From Monosporascus cannonballus (lineage: Eukaryota; Ascomycota; Sordariomycetes; Xylariales): DNA of 64,000 nucleotides. Shown here piece after piece: positions 35,801 through 49,900 of this stretch; position 1 is the first letter of the stretch; each line of letters opens with the position of its first letter. Both the position numbers and the translations under genes were made by a program. Under the pieces are notes generated by a model that ran no database searches, was not told the origin of the DNA, and was given only the letters and a program-made list of their open reading frames with translations. Location: positions 1 to 64,000 of the forward strand of contig QJNS01000729.1 in the NCBI GenBank assembly GCA_004154925.1. Direction: 5' to 3'.

Positions 35801-36155
35801 TGGATGATAAAAGCCTATCTTAATTCGGACAGTAGTAAGAAAAGGTGTACGTTCGGAATATATATAATCACAGGGATGATACGGTACATACCTGGCTGGG
35901 TGTTTAGAGATGGCTCAACTATAGACCAGAACCTGGTTACTTATATAGGTGCTTGAGGTGACAAGCGACAGATATAGTGGTGTATTATTATATACATGTA
36001 CTCTCCCAATTGCTTGAAAAACATGTGGCGGCAAAATGGGGGTGATCCGGAGCCCTCCTTAACCATCATTGCCTCTTGACCCATGCCATTATCTTGTCCT
36101 GTACCCAAATACCCAGCATGCCCCTTATGGAAGCTCTTCGTCTCTTTCATAGACC
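35801..36155 (-). other. Downstream region (3' flank) of the esterase gene
   Basis: Lies just beyond the esterase stop codon on the minus strand and probably holds its 3' UTR and transcript end. A 69-codon frame (36,150-35,941) follows the stop directly and has no recognisable motif. AT-rich pieces near 35,980 (TATTATTATATACATG) could serve in 3' end formation, but no firm signal can be assigned. Confidence 0.4.
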
Positions 36156-37665
36156 CTAGGCTGTCGTCTTGATTCCTTCACTGGGCAAAAAGCCACGGAT
36201 CTTCTTCCTACGACACTTGGGGGGGACCGTAGCGTTGTCTGTCTCGAAAATATTCAACGGAAATGCATCGGCTATCGCCTGGTAACCAGCAACGTTAGGG
36301 TGCAAATGATCTCCCCCATCATATTCAGCTGCCAGAACGGTCGGATCCGAGGCGTCGGCTACGATGCTTGCGAAGTCGATCACCGCGTCGAAGCTACCTT
36401 CTCCACCGCCCAGTATCCACTGGTTGACCATCTGCCTCGTCTGTTCTCTAGTGGGGTCACTGTAGGCCTGGCCTTCGCCACTGAACGGCATGGTGGTTGC
36501 CGCGAAAACCCTCAATCCGGCCGCCTTCGCGTCACTGGCGATCGTCTTGAATGCCGAGATGAGACCATTCCCGATTTGCTCCTGCGTAGCCGGGTCGGTT
36601 GACGCCACACCTATGTCGTTCACCCCCTCAAAAATGAGGGCATACTTGACGCCGGCGGTTTCTAGGAGGTCACGTTGGTAACGCTGCATAAGGGGTGGGC
36701 CTAGACCTCCTGTGAGCACAGCGTTACCGCCCGCCGCTTGGTTGCACACGGCGATGTCCGTGAGACCGTTTTCCTGCATTTTGGCGAGTAAAAGATCGGG
36801 CCAACTGAGAAATCTGTAAGTAACGCAACTGGAAAACAGGTACTAGGTAGGGATCGGTACCGGTTGTTCGCATTATTGTCGCTGCCACGGCCGTCTGTGA
36901 TGCTGTCGCCGAGAATCACCAGAGCTGATGTCGTCTGGGGCGCCCAAGCCTCTACCGCCGATAGGAAATACCAATGTACCACGCTGGCCTCCGTGATTGA
37001 CGACTCATTCAGATAATTGCCCTGCTGCATCCATGACGTCGTCCGGCTGCCTGGATGTCCGGTAACACTCGTTCCCGACTGACCCACTTCGAAGTACAGG
37101 TTCACAGTGATCATTGACCGCGGGCTAACCTTGAAGTCGATCGGGTCCGTGTAAACTACTTCTCCCATGGGGACAGTGACCGATGGAGAGCCATTGAACG
37201 TAAGGCCCATCAGTGTCTCAGTATCTATGTCACCGACGCCGGCTTGTCCCCCAGTGGGCAGCGCAATGGAAGCGGCGGTGATGGGGAGCTCGCTCCCCCC
37301 GAACGTGTTAGATATCTGTAAGCGGATCCTATCCGTGCCTATTGACATATGGAGCGTCTGGCGGAGTGTTGCATCTTGGAACACGGACGTGCTCGTCTAT
37401 GGCCATGTTAGGGATCGATCTTGCACTTTTACGAGAACGCACGACGTACGAATGGCTCTGGTGGCAGATTGTGCGGCTCAACAAGCTGTGGCATCGACGT
37501 CCATGTTGCTACCCAGTGGAAATTCCCAGTTTCATTTCCTGCGCGTTTCCCCGAGGAACCTGCTGAAACAGCGCTGGTATATGGCGAGAGCGCTAGCCAG
37601 ATAACCAGGGCTGAAATACTGAAGCTGAAGCGTCTCAGCTCAGGGATAAACGATAGAACGGACAT
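36156..37665 (-). CDS. Secreted SGNH/GDSL-family esterase, three exons, intact
   Basis: Exons 37,665-37,450, 37,396-36,861 and 36,804-36,156 join in frame to 466 codons plus stop. A signal peptide is visible: N-terminal region to residue 14, hydrophobic core about 15-30 (ISALVIWLAL), probable cleavage after AVSA (35). The SGNH catalytic blocks are complete: GDSITDGRG with the nucleophile Ser237, NQAAGGN (272-278) with the oxyanion Gly, EGVNDIG with Asn313, and DHLHPN with Asp416 and His419. The N-terminal part WVATWTSMPQLVEP and later DATLRQTLH and GHPGSRTTSW are typical of the extracellular XynE-like branch of SGNH hydrolases, which tend to deacylate polysaccharide or lipid esters. The substrate is not determinable here; a plant-cell-wall acetyl esterase is inference. 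At first glance the gene looks frameshifted near 36,830, but that is an intron. It is the only clearly intact protein gene in the window. The start ATG has A at -3. Confidence 0.93.
36805..36860 (-). other. Intron 2 of the esterase gene (56 nt, phase 2)
   Basis: On the minus strand it starts GTACCG and ends TTTCTCAG. Removal restores NANNR-WPDLLLAKMQ, the expected continuation after the GDS block. An earlier AG (TTACAG) would break the frame, so the second AG is used. Confidence 0.88.
37397..37449 (-). other. Intron 1 of the esterase gene (53 nt, phase 0)
   Basis: On the minus strand the intron starts GTACGT and ends CATAG, with a branch-site match CCCTAAC 13 nt before the end. Removal joins ...LPPEPF to TSTSVFQDATLRQTLH and keeps the family consensus in frame. 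Short introns with a CTAAC branch site are typical of filamentous ascomycetes. Confidence 0.9.
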
Positions 37666-37727
37666 TTTCCAGGTGACTTACAGTTAGAGAAGCGCCAAGA
37701 GGCGGCAATAGAAGCTGCACCATGGCT

Positions 37728-37740
37728 TGTATATATCTAG
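37728..37740 (-). promoter_or_regulatory. TATA-like box upstream of the esterase start
   Basis: On the minus strand GATATATACAAG lies about 65-70 nt before the ATG at 37,665. It is the best TATA-like match in the GC-normal upstream DNA. A GTAAGT also lies 12-17 nt before the ATG, so a 5' UTR intron is possible. Neither can be confirmed without transcript data. Confidence 0.4.
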
Positions 37741-38450
37741 CTTATCCTTGCTGAAGCGATTGAGAATGAGAAGCACGGAAGGAAGGCTTCCGCGGCTGGC
37801 TATATTACCGTGCAACCGGAACAATATAGGATCCGTTAAGCCGGGACGACCAGACAAAACCGTGGCAGGAACGCACGGAAAGGGAATGGTGCATCTTGGA
37901 TAAGTTGTGAGTAGGCGATCTAGATGGGACCTAACCAGTACGGCTGCCGATTCCGGATGCAACACTCCAAGCATGGCCCCACCACGCTCCGGGAGTACTG
38001 ATATACAATAGCGAGAGCTCGTTCATCGCCAGGTGCCGGGAAGCGCTGGACTGGCGGTCCGACGACCCCTGGCCTTTGAGTCCATCTGCGTGCCGAGGCT
38101 TGGCAGCGACTGATAGCGCTAGACGGCTCCAGGGCAGGCGCTGTAGGCTGCGCACCAGCGATTTGAAAAGCTTGGCCATCTGGCACTCGGACGACGGCAA
38201 CGTTCTGCAGATTAGACGGCCACCAGTTGGGGCCGTCGAAAGGGAGGCGCTGCACCCGACGCAAGTGAGGGGTGGTTCGAGCTGCCGCGTAGACGTAGCT
38301 GATGGGTGGAAGGACCCAGAGGCCATGATACGTCCCGACTCCCATGCAAGTATCGAATCCTACGCAGCACCTGTGCATGAAGGTGGAGTGGCCAGGCGCA
38401 GTGCTGGACCAGCTGTGCTTATTTCCGAGTGGATGAGATCCGAATCCTAA
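37741..38450. other. GC-normal region with unassigned open frames
   Basis: Overlapping frames of 124-152 codons occur on both strands (minus 38,378-37,920 and 38,326-37,931; plus 38,076-38,450). None has a recognisable domain. The composition matches the esterase gene and shows no RIP-type damage. It might be a diverged or broken gene, or the long promoter of the esterase. Confidence 0.35.
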
Positions 38451-39300
38451 GGTGTTACATGAGAACCTAGCTATTCGCTATAGTTGCATGGACTTTGTTC
38501 TGCGTAGTAGAATTGACCCTTGAGATAACTTAGGCCGACACCGCAGCTGGCTACCAAATTGACGATGGCGGATTATTAGGGACTAGTCCATAAGACGCCC
38601 ACGGCTGGAAGGGCTGGCTTTCTACCAGGGCACCTTCCTTCGTGATGTTGGTTTCGCTTAGCGCACCCTTCCCTCCGGTATCCCGGGTGCTCTCCGACGT
38701 CAAAGCCGGGCCTTTGCGCCGGACTTGGTGCCCCTTTAATAGAAAGTGCCCCGAATCAAAACGTATCGCTGCCAATATTGCTATGCGAGCTCCTTTAACT
38801 GCAGGAAGTTATCCCGGACGCTCCCACATCAGCAATACTGCTCTTGCTCCCAACAACCGCTCTTTGAGGGTTCGCACAACGAAGCCTACCTAATCAATAG
38901 ATTGAGGTCCAATTATGAAAGAACTTCCAACTCACCTCGGATGTGAGCTGAAGATAGCTAGGCTCTGCTTGGCAAAGGCCTCTATTAAAGCTTGAAGTGC
39001 GAGTGACGCGCTAGTAAATCTTGAGGCCATTGCGACCCCCTGCGTTGGAGGGAATTGCTTGTTGCAACGCTATCCACCTGAATATTCGGTATCCCACTTC
39101 GGATGTATTGTGTCAACTTCACCTCTTCAGGAACACCTTGGCCCCCCACGAGCCAGCCCACCTAGAAGCGGCCCTTCATACTGCACAGCAGGGTACTTAG
39201 ACTCTCTTTCGGCAGCGATAGGAGAATCGTTGGGCTATCCAGCGATTGGAATCTGCTTACTGGAATTCACAGGCTCGGCTGGTCTTACCTAAACCATGAA
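38451..39300. other. GC-normal region, no recognisable gene
   Basis: Open frames are short (66-83 codons) and overlap. A plus-strand stretch at 38,760-38,850 reads YRCQYCYASSF and then LPHQQYCSCS, Cys-rich and vaguely zinc-finger-like, but the frame is closed by stops just upstream and lacks a clear CX2C...HX3-4H pattern. I do not assign a gene. Confidence 0.35.
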
Positions 39301-39304
39301 GCAT

Positions 39305-39620
39305 AACTGGTTACGGCTACGGCCAATAGCGTGGAGAGATGCTTGGTCCCTGTGTCCCGTTGCGGTTGCGGCCAAGACTTGGAAATGACTCGGGGGGCTT
39401 TGCGAGTAAAACCGTCTGTGGCTACGCCTATGACTTGAACAAGCTCCAAGGCCATCGCCCCAGGTCGAATCCGTCTACGGCTACGGCCGTAGGTTTGGAT
39501 AGATTTGGAGCGGCATTTAAGGGAGTCAACCCGGTCTGCGGCTACGGCCCAGCCATGGAAAGCTTGACTTTCAGGGGCTACGGTCCTGTCACCGGGTGCG
39601 TGTTACACTGCCTGTAGTGG
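39305..39620. repeat. Cluster of imperfect 50-60-bp repeats with a GGCTACGG core
   Basis: Five units start near 39,309, 39,358, 39,412, 39,471 and 39,531. Each begins with a variant of CGTCTACGGCTACGGCC and is followed by a TTGGA-like segment (GACTTGGAAAT, GACTTGAACAA, GTTTGGATAG, CATGGAAAGC). A further core is at 39,571 (GGGGCTACGG) and a weaker one at 39,770 (CACGGCTAC). The spacing grows from about 50 to 61 bp. Plus-strand open frames in this region follow the repeats and are probably not genes. Confidence 0.6.
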
Positions 39621-40013
39621 CGAATGTTTTTCATCGCGTTCTCCAGTTCACTGGGGACGCGAAGAAGAGCGAGAGTCCACAATGGTCTCAGCTTACTCAA
39701 GACCGCACAAGCTAACGGATTGAGAAGCAATGCTTATACTTGTGGGTGATTTCCATGCGAGTGAAGCTGTTCACGGCTACAACTAAAGGGGCTTGGAAAT
39801 CCTCAGTGCCAACGAATCACGACAGTTTTTCCTGGCAGGCCCCGCCGTCTTGCCGGTATCCAATCACAGGAAATTCTGGCGTGTTCCGATCCCATCCTAG
39901 CGTTTACCTTCGGGCTACCCCGCCTCTAGCTGGGCCCCCAAAGAAAAGCTTTGAATATATGGACCCCGAGGAAGAAAGCAAATCAACCCACCGTCTCTAG
40001 ACAGCACGCAGAG
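39621..40013. other. GC-normal spacer before the tRNA
   Basis: An 86-codon plus-strand frame (39,740-40,000) has no recognisable domain. Otherwise nothing specific is seen. It forms the 5' flank of the tRNA gene. Confidence 0.45.
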
Positions 40014-40149: not shown

Positions 40150-43100
40150 GCTTTCCGGCGTAGTTTCTTTTTGCATTTTGCTGGTATTGGCTTAAGTGGA
40201 GAATGTCGAACGTTTCTGGATCGTCAAATCAGACTCTCAATGTCATCTCAATGTGTTTCTATTTTCTTTCGCATTTATGTTGCTGTTCTTTAACTGTTTG
40301 TACATCAATATCTATATATACTTTCGTAGACATAATACTTCGAATCGTACGTCTACCGGGGATCCTAAGTACTTAGAGTTTTAGTAAACAAATGCCCTTG
40401 AGCAGCGAAACAGTGTAAGAATAACAGGGCCGACTGGTATATCCCCTATAAGAAATAATAGGGGCACCTTATTACCGTTTGCCTTATCGCGATCAGTACC
40501 CCATTTTGAGAGTTATGGCGCCTGCGGCGTAGCAGCCGTAGCCATAGCTATAGGTTTTGATTAAGAAATAACTGTTAAATGTTCAATATATTAAATAAAC
40601 CCTTTTAAGACCTTTATTTATAAGAATACAAAAATTTTCAAAATAAAACCCAATAATAAGTTATGATTTTTCTAGCCCATTTTATACATTTTTATACAAA
40701 TTTTATAAATATAACTTTAATTTAATATTACTTATATTACAATCACCAGACGTTAATTTAAAATTAAAATTGGTATTTTTTTTTTACATATGTTTAGTTT
40801 GAATTAAGGTCGAATTAATATTATTAGGTTTAAAAAATAACTGAATATTTCGTTTTATGTATATTAAATTTTATAATCTTATTTCCACTAATATAATAAT
40901 AATATATCTTTACGAATGATAATAATAAAATATAAAGCTTAAAATTATTTATAATAAATTTAAAAACATATATTTTTTCTAATCAGCTTTATATGCATAT
41001 AAAATTTAAATATTTATAATATATATTTCAAATTTTCGAATATATAAGTTTTCGAAACGAAATATGTAATTTTGTATAATAATGTTTTTAGTATTTTGTC
41101 TATGAAAATATAATTAACTTATATATTAATGTTATATATACGGCCGATAACCTTATAAAAACTTTCCGTCGTTATTTTATTCTCCTTATATTAAACGTTA
41201 TTTTTAACGAATAAAGCTGAAGTTTATAAAAAACCTAAGATTAATATAATATATATTTTAGATTTTCTCCAAAACATATTTTTTCGTTATTAAAATAAAT
41301 TTTAGAAAGATTTTACTTATTTAAGCCTTTTTTTATAACCCATATAATTATTATTCAATTTATATTATTAATTAAACTGGCGCTAAAATATCAAATCTTT
41401 ATATCAGTAATTTTATATTGTATTTCTATTTTAATATCCGTAAATACGAAAAAAACTTGAAATACAAATATTCGATTATAAACTCGCCGGATAATATAAT
41501 TAAATAATTTTTTGTTTTATATAAAAGTTAAATAAGTAATTTTAAGTGATCATGTTAAATTTTCTTTTAGAATAACGGTATCATTTGATTATTATTAATA
41601 AAACATGTTTATTATTGAAGTTCAAAAGACTTTAGGTCTAAATATATTAATATTCGCATTCTGCGTTTTATTAATATATATTAATTTACTTATATAACAA
41701 CCGTTAATAATTGTATAAAAGATATAAAATTTGGCGACATTCGTTAAATTGACAACTTAACTAATTATAATTACAAAGCGGATATCCGGCGATTAATATT
41801 AATTATGGCGGAATCGCTTTGATAATTTTTCTTATACTTAAATATTATAGTTTATTTTAACAGCAATTATATTTTTTAATTAAATAATATATCTGAATTC
41901 ATAATATTTCTTAAATTTAACTTAATAATATACATTTTATTATTTACATTATTATTTATATTAATAATACTGCGAAAATTGAAAATATCTGCATTTACTT
42001 AATTAAAACTATATTAAACGAGATAAATTTATCGATAGTTCTTTAAAAAATTAAAGTTTTAGAATTTTAAAATGTTTTACAAATAAAAATTTATGATAAA
42101 TATTTGATGGACCAGCTCGCAATTATAATCGATTGAAAAGAATTAATTCTAAATAAGTTGTATTATTTATATTTCATTAAATATTTTATAAATACATCAC
42201 TAAATTTTTAAATATAAAAATATAAAATTGTTTAAAAAAAGCCTAGCCTCGGTAAATCAAAAAATTATATTATTTATTAAAATAGAAAATTCATAGTAAC
42301 AATTATAATTCATATTTTATCACATATACTCCCGATCAAAACAAAATAAATATCGAATCGCAATCTTATTTTTCCGCCAGTTAAAATATTATCCATATTA
42401 TTCTTAAAGTTTTGAAATAAAATAGTATTATTTTACATTACCAAACGAAACCAAGTGTTTAATAATACGTATTATTTTTCGATAAATATAAATTTATTGT
42501 AAATTTAATATATTTGAAAAAAAATTAAAGTTGCTACGTTGAAAAGAAATCGTAGTAACATTATTGATATTAAAATGTATTATAATATATATATTCCTAA
42601 TCTTTTCCATTTAGCGAAACTCGTTAATTCGAAAATAGTACCATTAAAATAACTAAAAGCCGGGTTTATAAAAGCGTCTATTTGAGTAATAATTAAGTCT
42701 TTATATCAACAACGAGCAAACGAATTTTTTTTAATACGGTTATTTTCGTTTAACGATAAAATAGTAAAATAAGTATTTAGTTTATTAAATTTAATTGGTT
42801 TTTGTTTAAGAAATTCTCGAATAAATTAAACGAAATGAAGTTCTGCACTTAATTTAGAACAGAATTTAATTAAATCAAATAATTCTCGATTTTAATAAAT
42901 AATGATATAAAAATGTTTCGAAAAGCCGTTTATTTTTTGCATTATGTACAGTATTTTTAAAAAAAATTTATTTTCAATTTTATAAAAATATAAGTAATGT
43001 TTTAAAAATAACGAAATTCGTTTAATTTGAAATAACGGTGCCATATTTTAATATCGTAAACAAATTTACACAGATTACGGGTTATTATTATAAATTCGAT

Positions 43101-43384
43101 AAACATCGAAAAAAAGTATAAAAATGCCGTAAATTATATTTAGTTTTATTTAGAATATATTATATATACTTTTTCGGTTTATATTAGCAATGAAGAATTT
43201 CACGATAATATCTATAATTTGAATGTGTATTAAGTATATAAATTTAATATTTTTTCGATGTTTAATTGTAGTTTTAATTGTAATAATCCTTAAATTTATA
43301 TTTATAATTTAGGACGTATTAGATAACTTTATGTAGGAATTTGTTTAGATCTTTTTATTTGTAATATTAAAAGTTTTCAGCCGT
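40150..43384. other. Island edge, then AT-rich DNA without genes
   Basis: Up to about 40,560 the sequence is GC-normal. It includes a hairpin around 40,443-40,463 (CCCCTAT...ATAGGGG) and a copy of the GGCTACGG motif in reverse (GTAGCAGCCGTAGCCATAGC near 40,529). A 62-codon frame at 40,196-40,384 has no recognisable motif. From 40,560 to 43,384 the DNA is strongly AT-rich, with no gene or element motif recognised. Confidence 0.55.
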
Positions 43385-43676
43385 GGTATCCCTTATTCCA
43401 AATCATAAGAACCAATACGCATAATATGAGACAAATATAAAGAAACGAATTAACAAATAACAAACATAAACTAAGTACATAAGGACACCAAAGACCCCAA
43501 TATCCCATAATATACAGTAAGATAAACCCAGATATTAATTTCATATTTACATAATAGCTATATAAATTATGTTATTAACTTAATTATTTTAGATAATAAT
43601 ATTAACTTAGGTATTAAGGCTTAATAACTTAAAATCAGTTCTCGATTTTATTGTACCAGATATACTTAAAGCGGCT

Positions 43677-43684
43677 ATAAATAG
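43677..43684 (+). promoter_or_regulatory. TATA box upstream of the Rep relic
   Basis: TATAAATA lies about 70-170 bp before the recognisable start of the Rep frame, in a locally less decayed context (GCGGCTATAAATAGCTAGCC). It is plausible as the complementary-sense promoter of the ancestral virus. In AT-rich DNA a chance match cannot be excluded. Confidence 0.4.
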
Positions 43685-43751
43685 CTAGCCCTTTAATAAA
43701 TAACCAAAGAACTTTTTCGACCTCGAAGCAAGAATTGCTAATACCGCATAA

Positions 43752-44642
43752 ACCATACCAAATATACGAAAGAATTTTCCAAAGCTAGTTTTAAAAGATT
43801 TACTTGCCGATAATACGGGCCGATTTAGATTAACGGCTAAATCCGTTTTTCTTACATACCCAAAATGCTACCTGGATTTATAAGAATTTATTGCAGGAAT
43901 TAATAAATTTAACTTTTAATAATATTACGTTATCCGTAAAGAATATAAAAACGGCACCCCTTATTTTTACGTAATCGGAAAATGGGTATAAAAAAATTTA
44001 AAAAACCCTTATTACTTTAATATTAAGGGATTTTATTTTAATATTACCAGAATATACAATAAATTAGCGGCTTGGCATTATTTTTATAAAAGCAAAAAAC
44101 GTTTAACTTATATCGGCGGCAATATGACAAAATTAAGGTTATTAAAAAAAATTAAAGAAAATTTTTGGTCGGCAGCAACGATAATTATTAATAAGGACGA
44201 GTTCGTATTCCGTTTTAAATTAAACGTATTTAAAATTTTGATATTTAATTACGGCAATATACGTTCCTATATAGACAACTATTTTAAACTTCCGGTACCA
44301 ATATATACCTTATCTAAATTTGATAGAATATGGGACCTATTAAAAAAGGTTTCCGATTAGGTTAAAAAAAACCTAAAAAATCCACTAGGTAAACATTTTG
44401 CCTGTCGCCGCTGCGGCTTTACGGAGGGGATACCCCTTTTACCCTTTTTCTTTCGAGACCGGCAGCTCGAAGGCGTTAGTCCATAAAGACGCATTTTTTT
44501 GCATAACAAATATTTAATTAGGGGCTTTCCCGTTTTCCGATTACATAAATACATTTTGAATAAAATAATCCCTTTATTCCGAGGCCTTTTTTTTTCGTTT
44601 TTCGGAAAGACCCCCTTTTCCGGGGAAAGTTATATATATTAA
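43752..44642 (+). pseudogene. Relic of a CRESS-DNA virus replication-initiation protein (Rep, HUH nuclease domain)
   Basis: One frame stays in register for about 297 codons with only a handful of stops, mostly TAA/TAG as CAA or TGG decay would give. Rolling-circle motif I is visible as VFLTYPKC (43,845-43,868). The metal-binding motif II position reads P-Y-F-Y (43,959-43,970), with Tyr where HUH nucleases have His. A GRS-like segment IKGFYFNI follows (about 44,016-44,040). Motif III reads HYFYK (44,076-44,090), keeping the catalytic Tyr and the Lys. The frame continues with FWSAATIIINKDEF and further segments resembling the Rep central domain, including the 78-codon open stretch 44,124-44,360. 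A Walker-A helicase motif could not be found after 44,360, so the helicase is missing, unrecognisable or replaced. In the virus, Rep nicks the origin and starts rolling-circle replication. This copy is inactive. Confidence 0.8.
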
Positions 44643-45344
44643 TTGGAATTTACATAAATAAATAGGGTTATAGTAATTTATTTACGGTTTTACGATAAGC
44701 AAATTAATTAAATTAATATAATTTAATTAAAATCCCTTTATATATACGGAAATACCTATACATATAAAATAATATAAGTACGTTTATTAGGATTATATAT
44801 ATATATAATAGGAAAATAAGATGTTATTTTTATGTTATTTTTATATAATTAATATATAATAATAAACGACATATTTTTATACGATAAATAAAGGCTAAAA
44901 TTTTATAAATAAATATTCGGCTATTAATAAAGTTTTTCCGTTATAAATAAGTACGTACGAAAAATATATTTTCTTAATTAGGGATTATTATATATATATT
45001 TAATTAACGAAAATTTACGTTTATATATAAAGGTAAATAAAAAATGGATAAAAAGAAATTATATTTTTGTGGAGGTAAAAAAGTTTTTGCTGGTGGAAAT
45101 AAAAAAAGTAAAAATATTTGATAATAAGACGGAAACATTAAATTTATTTTTAGAAAATATAAAAAACGATAATAATTATTAATATTAAATATTTGATTTT
45201 TTCTAATAAAATATAACCCGAATATTTTTAAATTTTATTGCAGGTAAAATATGCTTAATAACCCGATTTAAAATAATAATAAAAGTTTTTAATTAACCCG
45301 ATTACTAATTCGATAAAATATTAAACCCAAAAAAAAACCCGAAA
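44643..45344. other. AT-rich spacer between the two convergent viral frames
   Basis: About 700 bp with no clear frame. A short plus-strand stretch after an ATG at 45,043 is Lys/Gly-rich and closes quickly. By position it corresponds to the short intergenic region of an ambisense CRESS genome, or to an inserted or deleted helicase segment that can no longer be read. Confidence 0.4.
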
Positions 45345-46559
45345 TTAAAAGCCCGAACGTTTATACGTTAATGGCTTATTTTTATTATTAGAATTAATTT
45401 CCATAATAAATAAATTAAATAACCGAAATATACGTTTTATAAAAAAAACGAAAATATAAACCATAATAAGGAAATAAATATTAAAATTAAATTTAATATC
45501 TTTCGTAATCCGCAAAAAATTATTTACGTTATTTTTAAATTTTAATTTCCGTAATATCCGAATATAAATATTAAAAAGCCGATTTTCCAAACTGTTAATA
45601 TTATAAATAAAACGTTTATTATAAATCTTATCGATAAAAACGCGTTTTTTTGCTTTACGTCGAATAAGTTAATAAATAGGAACTTTAAGTTTTACCGGTT
45701 CCAAAATAATATTATCGCCAAGTAAAAATTTACAGGCGCAAATATCCGTAACCCTTATAGGACCAAAAAAACGCCCAACAAATTCGGGTAACTGCAAATA
45801 ACCCGGAGAACCGGGAATAAAAATATTGTTATTAGGCTTATTATAGGCCCGAATAGCTAAAATACGCAGAATATAATTGCGCGATACGATAATATCAAAA
45901 TTTAACCGAATACTATTAATAATAATAATTTGCGTAATCCGATTATTAAATCGATAAACCTTATTATTAGGAATCAAAAAAACAAAATTAAAATTTTCCG
46001 TATAAATAATAAACGTATACCGAATTTTATCAAATTATTCCATAATTTTTTAACATAATAATTGGTAAAAGCGATTTTCCGCATAGTACGCATAAAGCGA
46101 TAAGATACGTACGGATAATTAAAATAATAGCGGTAACCGCCAGAAAACCCTTTAGACATAATAGCGCGGGAAATGATAATAAGGTTACCGATCGTAATCG
46201 TCGTAAAATTAATTAGAAAACTGGTATTAAAAAATAAAAATTTTACGTTTTTTTCTAATTAAATTACGTAAACGAAACGAAGGATAAAGGAAAAAATTTT
46301 TAGAAAAAGAAAAAGGCGGATAACGATAATCGAAAGAATAAGGATCATAAGGTAACGATCTTTTAGTATAATCAGGACCCTAAACTTTATAATTAGCAGT
46401 ATATTAATATTACGGAGAAAAAAAATTAACTAAAATACGTTAATACCGACGCGTATAACCAGAATAACGAATAATACCGTACTAACGATTAGGATAAAAC
46501 CTGGGACAATAACGGCAATAGCGGCGATAAGGATAATAAAGATAACGATAACGGAACAT
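45345..46559 (-). pseudogene. Convergent 405-codon frame, candidate capsid gene of the CRESS element
   Basis: A single minus-strand frame runs from an ATG at 46,559 to a stop at 45,345. It is interrupted by about a dozen in-frame stops but shows no frameshift. It begins MFRYRYLYYPYRRYCRYCPR, a very basic Tyr/Arg-rich N-terminus like those of many CRESS-virus capsid proteins. Open sub-stretches at 45,977-45,669 (with IFIPGSPGYLQLPEFVGRFF) and 45,590-45,345 lie in the same frame; the 46,159-45,974 open stretch is in another frame and is a shadow. The core did not match a capsid family that I recognise, so the call rests on length, N-terminal composition and the convergent position opposite Rep. 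An unrelated transposon gene is the alternative. Confidence 0.45.
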
Positions 46560-46832
46560 GGTATTAAGAAAAGTTTTAAAAAAATTTAAAAAGATAAAGA
46601 AAAAAAAAGATTAAGTAAAGAAAGAAAGAATAAAAATGTGAATAAAATAAGTGGTGCTAATGCGCTGGAATACGAGATTTAACGTATATGCTAAGATTAA
46701 ACTAAGAAATATTAAACCCGAAAAAGCAAACTAAATTTGAATACGAAATTTGGCGTATACATTAATACCGGAAAAGCCTATATCCGATATAAGGACATTA
46801 ACGCTAAAAAAGTCTTACAATTCCAATTAGTA

Positions 46833-46920
46833 GGACACCAAAACAAAACCGGAATCCTAGATATCCGATTGGTGCATACCCTAGTAAAACACCAAAACAC
46901 CACGGCTGTAATATTAGCGT
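46833..46920. promoter_or_regulatory. Origin-like region: CACCAA boxes and TAATATTAG nonamer
   Basis: CACCAA occurs at 46,836-46,841 and 46,890-46,895, and in inverse (TTGGTG) at 46,869-46,874. A related box lies at the other end of the element at 43,486-43,491. The nonamer TAATATTAG (46,909-46,917) is flanked by a short imperfect stem (ACGGCT/AGCGT). Iterated Rep-binding boxes beside a TAATATTA-type nonamer are features of geminivirus/genomovirus origins. The match is suggestive, not proven, in AT-rich DNA. Confidence 0.4.
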
Positions 46921-46922
46921 AA

Positions 46923-49900
46923 AATGTTTTTCTCTTTTAAATAATTTCGCTCGGTTTTCTTTACCGTATTTATATTTGTATAGTTCGTTGGTTTTGGTAT
47001 TATTACCGAAATTGCAGATATTACTAAAACGTAATAATACGTAATGTGGCGTTATTAACAATATATTCGTAAACAAAACCGAAATAAAACTTTTTTATCC
47101 AGATTAAAAAATTACGCGTTAAAAATAAATAGCATTTATTTGATAATAATAATAATAAGTTAAAATATAATTACGATATTAAGTTAGAAAGCAAAAAACG
47201 TAATACGGTCAATTTTAATTAAGGACGATAATAAAAATCGTACTTGATATCGGCGTAGCGTTATAATGATAAAACGCAAGAATTATTAATATTTCTTTGA
47301 TATTATTTATAATTATTAATATATTATTTATATATTAAATATAGTATTTTATTAATTTCAGATATATTAAGTTATATTCATTATCTTAATTCGTCGCAAT
47401 CCGGATTAGGTATATATTATATTAAATATATAATAAAAATTTAAATTCAAATAATTAATGAACCTTTATGTTACGTATTTCTAACTATAAGTTGTTATAC
47501 TTATAAGTAAATTAATATGTTAATTTATAATTTCGGACTCTGAATTTTGGAGACAAATTTGTAATTTTTTAGTTTTCTTTTTTTCTTCGAATTTGTCGTA
47601 ATTATTTTTAACATATTTTTATTTTTTTAATCTTTAAGATACCTTACTTCAGATTAAGTAACTAGGGTAAAAATTTAATTATCTAGATAAATAAATAATA
47701 AGAATAGGTTTCGCGAATATTAAAAAGGTTATTTGTTCGTTACGCATATAGTTATTTTAGTATTCGGTTTTTTAAATAGTATTTTAGAATTTCTTAGAAC
47801 TATATTTTAATTTTATTGTTGTAAATTTAATAATTTACGTTATTGATTTTAAACTGGGGATATATATAATATTTATTATTTTTAGAAAATAAGTTATTCG
47901 TAATTTTAATCAGAGTTTTCCGGGATTAACTATTTATTTTATTATATTGTTAACGAGAATTTTGTAACTTAATTTTTTTTTCTTCAATTTTGGTAAAGTT
48001 TTATATAAATAATTTATTTTTAAATGTTTCGAACTAAGGAGTATCGGTTTTGCTTTTCGAGGTATATGATATAAAAAGGTACGAATCTTTTTCTTAATAT
48101 TACGTTTTTTTCGCTAAGTTATTTAAACTTATAACTAGTTATTAGAAATCTTTTATATTAAAAGCGCATATAAATATAATAATAATAAACGGTTATTCCG
48201 AATAATTACTAAACTTTTAACGTTAATACTGAATATACAAAGCTCTTTAAAAATGTAATTTTTATATATCATTATTCGTTCGATATCCGTATACTCGAAA
48301 ATACGAGAAAAGATTCGTATAATATTATAAAAATAACGTCTATATAATATTCATTACACAATATATTACAGTTTAGCTTTCTTAATTAAGATATCCAAGT
48401 GTTTATATCTTTACTATTATTTATATTATATAAATTATGGTTGGATAAAATTTTCGAAAACGGAGAGCGGCTAAAATTATTTATTAATTAAAAAAATATA
48501 CATTGGTTAATGTCATAATGTAAACAACATTTAATTTTCGCATTTTATATATCGTTAATTTTATTATTATCTTTCGGTGAAGTAAAAAAGAAAAAAATAA
48601 ATATATTATATAGTACCTTTCTTAGATTTTAAGTTAATTTATAAAATTATTAGTATATGCAAATAAGGTTTTGAATAACATTTAATAAACTAGATATATA
48701 TATCAAATGCGACCTTAGATAAATAAATATTATTTAAATATATTTATTAATGAAATATACCTTAAAATATATAGATATCGAGATCTAAACTACCCTTTCT
48801 CGTATATATTAATAAAATGCGTTTTTAAAAAAGTTTATAATATTTGAATTTTATTAAATTATTAAATATCTTATCAAATGTTGACTTTATTAACTAGAAC
48901 AACATTTATTAAAATAATATATATAGTTGGAAATAAAATAGCCGAAATAGAATTATAATAAATATAATTCGCATCGAAATTTCATTAAGTGGCGCGCTAG
49001 CTTTTAAATATATATTAATTTTTATTATATTATAACATATTATTAAAATATAATTATTGTATTGTATTTTATTAAATAACGGTTTTAGTATTATTGAAAT
49101 TAGGAAATATTAATTATATATAATTAAGTCAATAAACCTAAAAAATAGAACACAATATAAATTTATTAATATAATTCCAGTCACTTTCAAAGCTAGAATA
49201 TATAAATAAATTCATTATATCAAAAGGCAATCGGATATATTATTAATATTAAGAAGAGATATATAAAAATATATTATATATAAATAAAATCTATAAATTA
49301 TTAAAGTTATATAAGTTATTAAATGTTTAAAAAACGTTACTTTGAAGATTCAGTAATAATATATAAACTTTTAAATAATTATATAAAAATTATAAAATAT
49401 AATATTTTTATTATAAATGCCTTGATATAATTATTATTACATATTTAAATATATTTCAGTATAATGCTAAACATCTGTTTGTTTTTAATATATAAAATTA
49501 TATAACTTATAAATACAGAACGGATAATGAAATTATAATATATATTTATTATATTTTACGATTAATTAAAAACATATTTTGAAGGATATATTAAAAATGA
49601 AGTAAAATATGTCACCTAATAATATATTATTACAAAAGTTACAAAATCTCAATTATCCGGTAAAATTTATTTTATTTAATAATAATATTTTACAAAATAA
49701 TATACTGGTAAGAAATAACTTATTTTAAAACAATAACAAATTTTCGAAATATAATTTCGTTTCGAAAATAATTTCAAAAACGAATAATAAAATTCAAATA
49801 TAAAAAATAAGCAATATTGATATTAAGCTAATTTAAAATAAAATAAAGTTTGTAACGTAATTTTATTTAAACTAATTTCTTTTTAATTCAATAATATTTG

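What the first reader, a model, noticed from the sequence alone, without database searches (positions are those of the whole stretch)
43752..44642. RIP-decayed endogenous Rep of a CRESS-DNA (geminivirus/genomovirus-like) virus
Seen: one plus-strand frame of about 297 codons with rolling-circle motif I (VFLTYPKC), a motif II site reading Y-F-Y, a GRS-like segment (IKGFYFNI) and motif III (HYFYK), in the correct order and spacing. Known: these motifs define HUH-type Rep proteins of CRESS-DNA viruses; the GRS between motifs II and III is typical of geminiviruses and genomoviruses. Inferred: a viral genome entered the fungal nucleus, was recognised as a repeat and mutated by RIP, which explains Tyr in place of His and the TAA stops. 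RIP normally needs two copies, so a second copy should exist or have existed.
Basis: partly seen in the sequence, partly recalled or inferred. Interest (0 to 1): 0.9.

Follow-up and report, generated by a model that had tools for sequence, protein, structure and literature searches.

The report
Virus-derived jumping gene in fungus
A fungal genome holds about thirty decayed copies of a small element with a virus-type replication gene, and the copies sit where host DNA resembles the element's own replication-start signal, which suggests how such viruses can turn into jumping genes.

Summary
The frame lies inside a 3,556-bp repeat (window 43361-46916) found at about 33 places in this 88.8-Mb fungal genome and altered by RIP-like C-to-T change. 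Copies keep a coding signature for a geminivirus-type Rep on the plus strand and an unidentified ORF2 on the minus strand. A profile of 12 natural Rep pieces matched six PDB sequences at E<=10, all Reps (best 0.0045); Pfam alone is no better than chance. Both ends carry GTAATATTA, the reverse complement of the geminivirus nonanucleotide TAATATTAC (exact in 21 of 25 left and 9 of 17 right ends scored), with inverted arms inside: a CRESS-type circle opened at its origin. At three of four host sites tried, empty relatives hold one 9-base stretch like it (exact in 2 of 20; 33 of 34 differences are transitions) where filled sites hold two. Best explanation: a CRESS-DNA-virus-derived element, transposon or repeatedly endogenised mycovirus, inserted by Rep at host copies of its nick sequence, later silenced by RIP. 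Rep's action is inferred; no helicase motif was found. The nearest known element, in black truffle, is described with transposase ORFs and no target duplication.

The parts
43361..43369 (-). Left copy of the 9-mer (GTAATATTA on +, TAATATTAC on -); host-derived under the nick model
   Evidence: exact in 21 of 25 left ends scored (30 loci tried); empty-site alignments
43378..43387 (+). Left arm CAGCCGTGGT of the origin stem, inverted to the right arm
43660..44390 (+). Rep coding region (decayed): catalytic and central domains, no helicase motif seen
   Evidence: third-position transversion excess; PDB profile match; no Walker A pattern in 30 loci
43845..43868 (+). Rolling-circle motif I, VFLTYPKC
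   Evidence: profile A2 against PDB
43962..43970 (+). Motif II position, Y-F-Y here; His survives at one or other position in single other copies
44022..44045 (+). GRS-like segment IKGFYFNI
   Evidence: identification by eye
44076..44090 (+). Motif III HYFYK (Y and K invariant in the 11 aligned pieces)
44394..44737 (.). Subfamily-specific spacer, largely without coding signature; a different stretch of about 260 bases stands here in the second subfamily
44561..45310 (+). Weaker plus-strand coding signature in Rep phase; ORF of unknown nature ending at a stop near 45182
   Evidence: no Pfam family above chance
45311..46258 (-). ORF2, minus strand, about 300 codons, broken by stops and an indel; in the place of a capsid gene but not identified
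   Evidence: no Pfam match; PDB no relevant match
46828..46899 (+). Two 18-base direct repeats TAGTAGGACACCAAAACA / TAGTAAAACACCAAAACA (46828-46845, 46882-46899), candidate Rep-binding iterons
   Evidence: role inferred
46897..46908 (+). Right arm ACACCACGGCTG of the origin stem
46908..46916 (-). Right copy of the 9-mer (TAATATTAC on -)
   Evidence: exact in 9 of 17 right ends scored (22 stretches tried); 4 more read ATAATATTA

Best explanation
The frame is the Rep gene of a CRESS-DNA-virus-derived element (3,556 bp, about 33 places). Shown: the unit begins and ends at the origin nonanucleotide; its ends carry the two arms of an origin-like stem; Rep lies complementary-sense and a second coding region virion-sense, as in geminiviruses; copies diverged under coding constraint and then decayed by RIP-like change; at three host sites empty relatives hold one 9-base stretch where filled sites hold two. 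Inferred: Rep cut a circular or displaced single-stranded copy at TAATATT^AC, cut a host copy of the same or nearly the same sequence, and joined the ends, so that each insertion duplicated the 9-mer. RIP then silenced the family. This covers both a transposon and a virus that endogenised many times; the two are not separated here.
For: Copies: 37 DNA matches and 52 protein-piece matches in the own genome. Rep: profile of 12 natural N-terminal pieces against 177,635 PDB sequences, 6 hits at E<=10, 6 of 6 Rep proteins, best E 0.0045. Coding constraint. Ends: of 25 left ends scored, 21 exact and 4 with A for the first G (2 of these with a further change); TAATATT in 24 of 25; right ends 9 of 17 exact. 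Background: 14 occurrences of the 9-mer on both strands of the 64-kb window, the element's own two included, 1.1e-4 per site per strand. Empty sites: 14 relatives of the L011 host site, 3 of the window's own, 3 of the L012 site, each with a single 9-base stretch at the junction; 33 of the 34 differences from GTAATATTA are transitions, as RIP makes. Independent hits on one site: L002 (first spacer type) and L011, L014 (second type) share both flanks. RIP-like change.
Against: Only 2 of 20 empty relatives carry the exact 9-mer; those of the window's own site differ from it at 2, 4 and 5 of 9 positions, so that the target was exact at insertion is inferred. No Walker A pattern in the plus frames of 30 loci, although CRESS Reps normally carry a helicase (recalled). 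Central Rep pieces found nothing relevant in PDB, the protein collection (23 candidates, 0 hits) or IMG/VR. Pfam is no support by itself: 3 of 18 Rep-frame pieces matched a Gemini family (E 0.034, 0.061, 0.1, all under the cut-off), while the 71-aa piece with motifs I and II matched unrelated families at E 0.022 and 0.024 and no Gemini family. The PDB match covers about 30 residues round motif I. The A-tract after motif II varies in length, so motif II and the GRS-like segment do not share a frame in every copy. ORF2 is unidentified. No joined origin was found (up to 3 mismatches; a decayed one could be missed).
Confidence: 0.7

Rival explanations
1. Virus-only version of the best explanation: an exogenous CRESS mycovirus population integrated many times, each time linearised at its origin, and the integrated copies never moved on their own.
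For: Virus-like ambisense layout and origin; divergence under coding constraint, which an exogenous virus explains equally well; two subfamilies.
Against: About 33 places with the same ends and no joined origin found; no relative found in IMG/VR in four scans. Not excluded.
Confidence: 0.3
2. Ordinary DNA transposon that captured a rep gene; a DDE transposase cut a 9-bp stagger (as Mutator-like elements do, recalled).
For: 9-bp duplication and short inverted ends; the truffle element is described with two transposase ORFs (PMC3198968, section 8).
Against: The duplicated sequence is nearly fixed: 21 of 25 left ends exact GTAATATTA. No transposase family among the matches of 34 pieces scanned with Pfam, but pieces are short and decayed.
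Confidence: 0.1
3. Tyrosine-recombinase element of Crypton type (recalled): a circle recombines with an identical short host sequence, leaving direct repeats.
For: Would also duplicate a fixed short site (recalled); the repeats at both ends are the same 9-mer.
Against: No recombinase family among the matches of 34 pieces; the repeat is the viral origin sequence inside an origin-like stem.
Confidence: 0.03
4. Passive amplification: one dead viral insertion was copied along with host DNA.
For: Copies lie in repeat-rich DNA; L002, L011 and L014 share both flanks.
Against: Of 276 pairs of left flanks only 11 score above the best of 2,000 shuffles, of 105 right pairs only 6; the three sharing both flanks carry different spacer types; third-position transversion excess means divergence under coding constraint.
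Confidence: 0.04

Closest known systems
Geminivirus-like transposon of Tuber melanosporum (Liu et al. 2011, PMC3198968; section 8 read, passages)
   Same: Geminivirus-type Rep with stops in a multi-copy fungal element (42 Rep genes or remnants there), inverted termini
   Different: There: over 95% identity between copies, 37-bp inverted repeats, no obvious target duplication, two transposase ORFs. Here: 65-84% identity to the window copy, RIP-like decay, ends equal to the opened replication origin, 9-bp duplication, no transposase seen
Endogenous geminiviral sequences of plants (yam EGV, PMC5014472; survey, PMC7758297; passages only)
   Same: Rep and TAATATTAC hairpin in a nuclear genome; the yam authors suggest Rep-mediated expansion
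   Different: A yam copy is described as a partial tandem repeat; the words 'target site' and 'target site duplication' do not occur in the two main texts. Here single units at 9-mer sites
AAV Rep-directed integration at AAVS1 and TrwC relaxase integration at oriT-like sites (review PMC5714925, passages)
   Same: HUH enzyme directing integration to host sequences resembling its own nick site
   Different: AAV inserts at some distance from the nick, often as concatemers; here insertion is at the 9-mer, one unit at a time
IS91 and Helitrons (PMC5714925 passages; Helitron details recalled)
   Same: Rolling-circle HUH transposition: one strand displaced and joined to a target
   Different: Other transposase families, not geminivirus-type Rep; here a duplicated 9-mer and a two-gene ambisense layout

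Membership tests
CRESS-DNA (geminivirus-type) Rep | Motif I (F-L-T-Y-P type) with matching neighbourhood | tested here: met
   6 of 6 PDB hits are Reps. Pfam alone was at chance level (Gemini_AL1 E 0.034; unrelated families at 0.022)
CRESS-DNA (geminivirus-type) Rep | Motif II H-x-H | tested here: inconclusive
   Window Y-F-Y; second His in L012, first in L022; I saw no copy with both
CRESS-DNA (geminivirus-type) Rep | Motif III Y-x-x-K after a GRS-like segment | tested here: met
   Y and K invariant in 11 aligned natural pieces; GRS judged by eye; no profile match
CRESS-DNA (geminivirus-type) Rep | Superfamily 3 helicase with Walker A | tested here: not met
   no Walker A pattern in the plus frames of 30 decayed loci; decay could have removed it
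Geminivirus/genomovirus-like replicon | Hairpin origin with nonanucleotide TAATATTAC | tested here: met
   split over the two ends; the joined form was not found in the assembly
Geminivirus/genomovirus-like replicon | Rep complementary-sense, capsid virion-sense, divergent from the origin | tested here: inconclusive
   Orientation fits; ORF2 not identified as capsid
Truffle-type geminivirus-like transposon (PMC3198968) | Transposase ORFs, 37-bp inverted repeats, no target duplication | tested here: not met
   No transposase family matched, arms of 10-12 bases, 9-bp duplication
Geminiviridae or Genomoviridae proper | Placement in a Rep phylogeny | not tested
   Needs a whole Rep; step referred

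The most novel reading that the evidence does not exclude
A class of eukaryotic transposon in which a geminivirus-type Rep is itself the transposase: it opens the replicon at TAATATT^AC and inserts one unit exactly into host copies of that nonanucleotide, leaving a 9-bp origin-sequence duplication. RIP of host repeats may have made the targets: some empty relatives read GTGGTATTA or GTGGCATTA, and C-to-T and G-to-A changes lead from these to GTAATATTA. The genome's defence would then have fed the parasite.
Probability: 0.45. Interest if true: 0.88.

Novelty: new variant of a known kind. Interest (0 to 1): 0.78.

Why it matters
How circular single-stranded DNA viruses enter eukaryotic chromosomes, and whether their Reps can act as transposases, is to my knowledge an open question; many endogenous copies are too broken to show the junction. 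Here many junctions, and empty counterparts of three of them, can be read in one genome, and they point to cutting and joining at the viral nick sequence. That makes Rep-directed integration testable with oligonucleotides, and gives a marker (a duplicated nonanucleotide) to look for in other genomes.

Tried and rejected
Searched without result: central Rep pieces in PDB, the protein collection and IMG/VR (one search gave one unrelated chain at E 0.11), N-terminal pieces in IMG/VR, ORF2 pieces in Pfam, PDB and IMG/VR (one search gave one unrelated chain at E 0.18). Pieces of the plus-strand ORF after the spacer and of the spacer itself gave only chance-level Pfam matches (DUF365 at E 0.04 and 0.12 on two copies of the same piece, others weaker). 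Pfam PF00799 against the whole genome gave nothing, but neither did the control genomes, so it shows nothing. Two AlphaFold models of natural pieces were useless (mean pLDDT 47 and 49) and were not taken to fold search. A first boundary search with permissive scoring matched AT-rich DNA everywhere and was discarded. Two flank scripts used a wrong window or failed and were redone (searches then 30, 87 then 89). Rfam found nothing in 43000-47200. The empty-site search with L010 flanks showed no spanning site among its 42 rows. A gene in the GC-rich island matched SGNH hydrolases whose best named sources are filamentous ascomycetes, so I take the host to be one; the species is not known. Changes after my own check: Pfam is now told as chance-level, the exactness of empty sites is counted, and the odds of the best explanation (0.72 to 0.70) and of the novel case (0.50 to 0.45) were lowered for that.

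Full report
1. What is there. The frame 43752-44642 exists with the motifs named, in order, and has six internal stops. A search of the window's own genome (88.8 Mb, 618 contigs, unnamed) with 43600-44650 gave 37 matches, and the 122-aa natural piece 43992-44357 gave 52. Counting split matches once, this is 32 places (30 listed loci, the window's included, plus C100 and C163; a 57-base C70 match left out) and one more (C606:176407; a weak C135 match left out): about 33. The tool says such counts are lower bounds.

2. The unit. Pairwise comparison put sharp ends near 43352-43361 and 46916-46928, and aligned junctions put them at the base. The unit is 43361-46916, 3,556 bp. Two subfamilies differ in the spacer 44394-44737.

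3. Coding. Transversions, which RIP does not make, were counted against the window copy over the aligned copies (mean depth 21.8; loci L002, L007, L011 and L018 were replaced by longer overlapping ones, and stretches of one copy fetched in two pieces overlap by up to some 270 bases). They concentrate at the third position of the Rep frame over 43661-44410 (chi-square 67 to 93), show nothing over 44411-44710 (1.1), reappear in the same phase over 44561-45310 (25, 27, 7.5 and 40 in successive windows), move to another phase over 45311-46060 (47 to 95) and to a third pattern up to about 46360 (28 and 18). Phase does not tell the strand; the assignment of 45311-46258 to the minus strand rests on its long natural open frames. 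So the copies diverged while genes were under constraint, and decayed later.

4. Rep identity, by pieces. In Pfam, 18 Rep-frame pieces were scanned (5, 2 of 9, 10, 1 of 10). Gemini_AL1 came at E 0.034 and 0.1 and Gemini_AL1_M at 0.061, all under the cut-off of 24 bits; unrelated families came as low as 0.022. Pfam is therefore no evidence by itself. The profile of 12 N-terminal pieces matched six PDB sequences at E<=10, all Rep proteins: 1l2m (0.0045), 7kik, 6we0, 6we1, 6q1m, 7vg8 (0.84). The three other profiles (A1, A3, A4) matched no Rep. Motif II is Y-F-Y in the window; L012 has F-H-V and L022 P-H-F. Y and K of motif III are invariant in 11 pieces. No Walker A pattern was found in 30 loci.

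5. The ends are the origin. Of 30 loci, 25 left ends could be scored: 21 read GTAATATTA, two ATAATATTA, one ATAATATGA, one ATAATATTC; the base before is variable (13 T, 7 A, 4 C, 1 G). The five not scored are L020, L022, L026, L029 and L030; of these one search shows GCAATATTA in L020, ATAATATTA in L030 and a more changed end in L026. Of 22 right-end stretches tried (the window and L061-L081), 17 could be scored: 9 exact, 4 ATAATATTA, 4 otherwise changed; L062, L066, L069, L070 and L076 could not. GTAATATTA is the reverse complement of TAATATTAC, which a passage of PMC5014472 gives as the usual geminivirus nonanucleotide. The arms CAGCCGTGGT (43378-43387) and ACCACGGCTG (46899-46908) are perfect inverted repeats in the window, longer by two bases in many other copies. 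Read on the minus strand, the order is TAATATTAC, ORF2 virion-sense, Rep complementary-sense, TAATATTAC. The nick point TAATATT^AC is recalled knowledge.

6. Empty sites. Joined flanks of L011 found spanning relatives of a host repeat (40 of 2,612 candidates scored). Fourteen were read; each has one 9-base stretch at the junction: 8 ATAATATTA, 1 GTAATATTA, 5 others. Three relatives were read for the window's own site (ATAATGTCG, ATAATGTTA, ATAACGTCG) and three for the L012 site (GTAATACTA, ATAATACTA, GTAATATTA). In one search a row without the 9-mer needs a gap of exactly nine bases. In all, 2 of 20 are exact, and 33 of 34 differences from GTAATATTA are transitions. The L010 flanks gave no spanning site, so three of four host sites tried gave empty counterparts. 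L002, L011 and L014 sit at one site of one host repeat but have different spacer types, and L006, L007 and L012 share left flanks of another (scores 126, 114 and 86 against a shuffle maximum of 75), again with both spacer types: independent insertions at the same sequence. L006 has a left flank of one host repeat and a right flank of the other, which may be recombination between copies.

7. RIP. The element has TpA/ApT 1.12 and (CpA+TpG)/(ApC+GpT) 0.57, against 0.83 and 1.20 at 36001-40000; C/T variation is highest at CpA (0.67) and CpT (0.64), then CpC (0.48), lowest at CpG (0.40). This is RIP-like, with a CpT share that classical RIP does not stress (recalled).

8. Reading. The simplest account is a replicon of CRESS type whose Rep cut and joined at its own nick sequence in host DNA. 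That the left 9-mer is exact in 21 of 25 copies with mostly unrelated flanks speaks for choice of target; that most empty relatives are no longer, or never were, exact leaves room for a looser target whose sequence was overwritten by the element's. Virus and transposon cannot be separated here. Papers: listings; in these open-access searches I found no description of a nonanucleotide target duplication by a fungal Rep element. PMC3198968 (section 8 and passages) and PMC5014472, PMC7758297 and PMC5714925 (passages) were seen; no paper was read whole.

Noticed in passing
C108:75730-82589 and C163:44868-51564 (rows): Two copies of the element are each in two pieces 6.7-6.9 kb apart, broken at neighbouring but not identical points of the Rep region; perhaps insertions of one large transposon family. 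The intervals were not read through.
   Followed up: no
L010 right flank (C21:141321-141522) and rows: A GC-richer repeat of about 140 bases, up to 93% identical between places, 40 of 619 candidates scored: it looks young and little decayed amid RIP-decayed DNA.
   Followed up: no
window 44394-44500: GC-richer stretch inside the AT-rich element, present in one subfamily only; possibly an inserted or exchanged piece.
   Followed up: partly
window 36156-37384: Minus-strand gene in GC-rich DNA; 36159-36779 matches SGNH hydrolase/esterase proteins, best 73% identity.
   Followed up: partly
L006 (C207): Left flank belongs to one host repeat, right flank to another: possible ectopic recombination between two copies of the element.
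   Followed up: partly
window 43990-43996 and the same place in other copies: The length of this A-tract between motif II and the GRS-like segment differs between copies, which changes the frame.
   Followed up: partly
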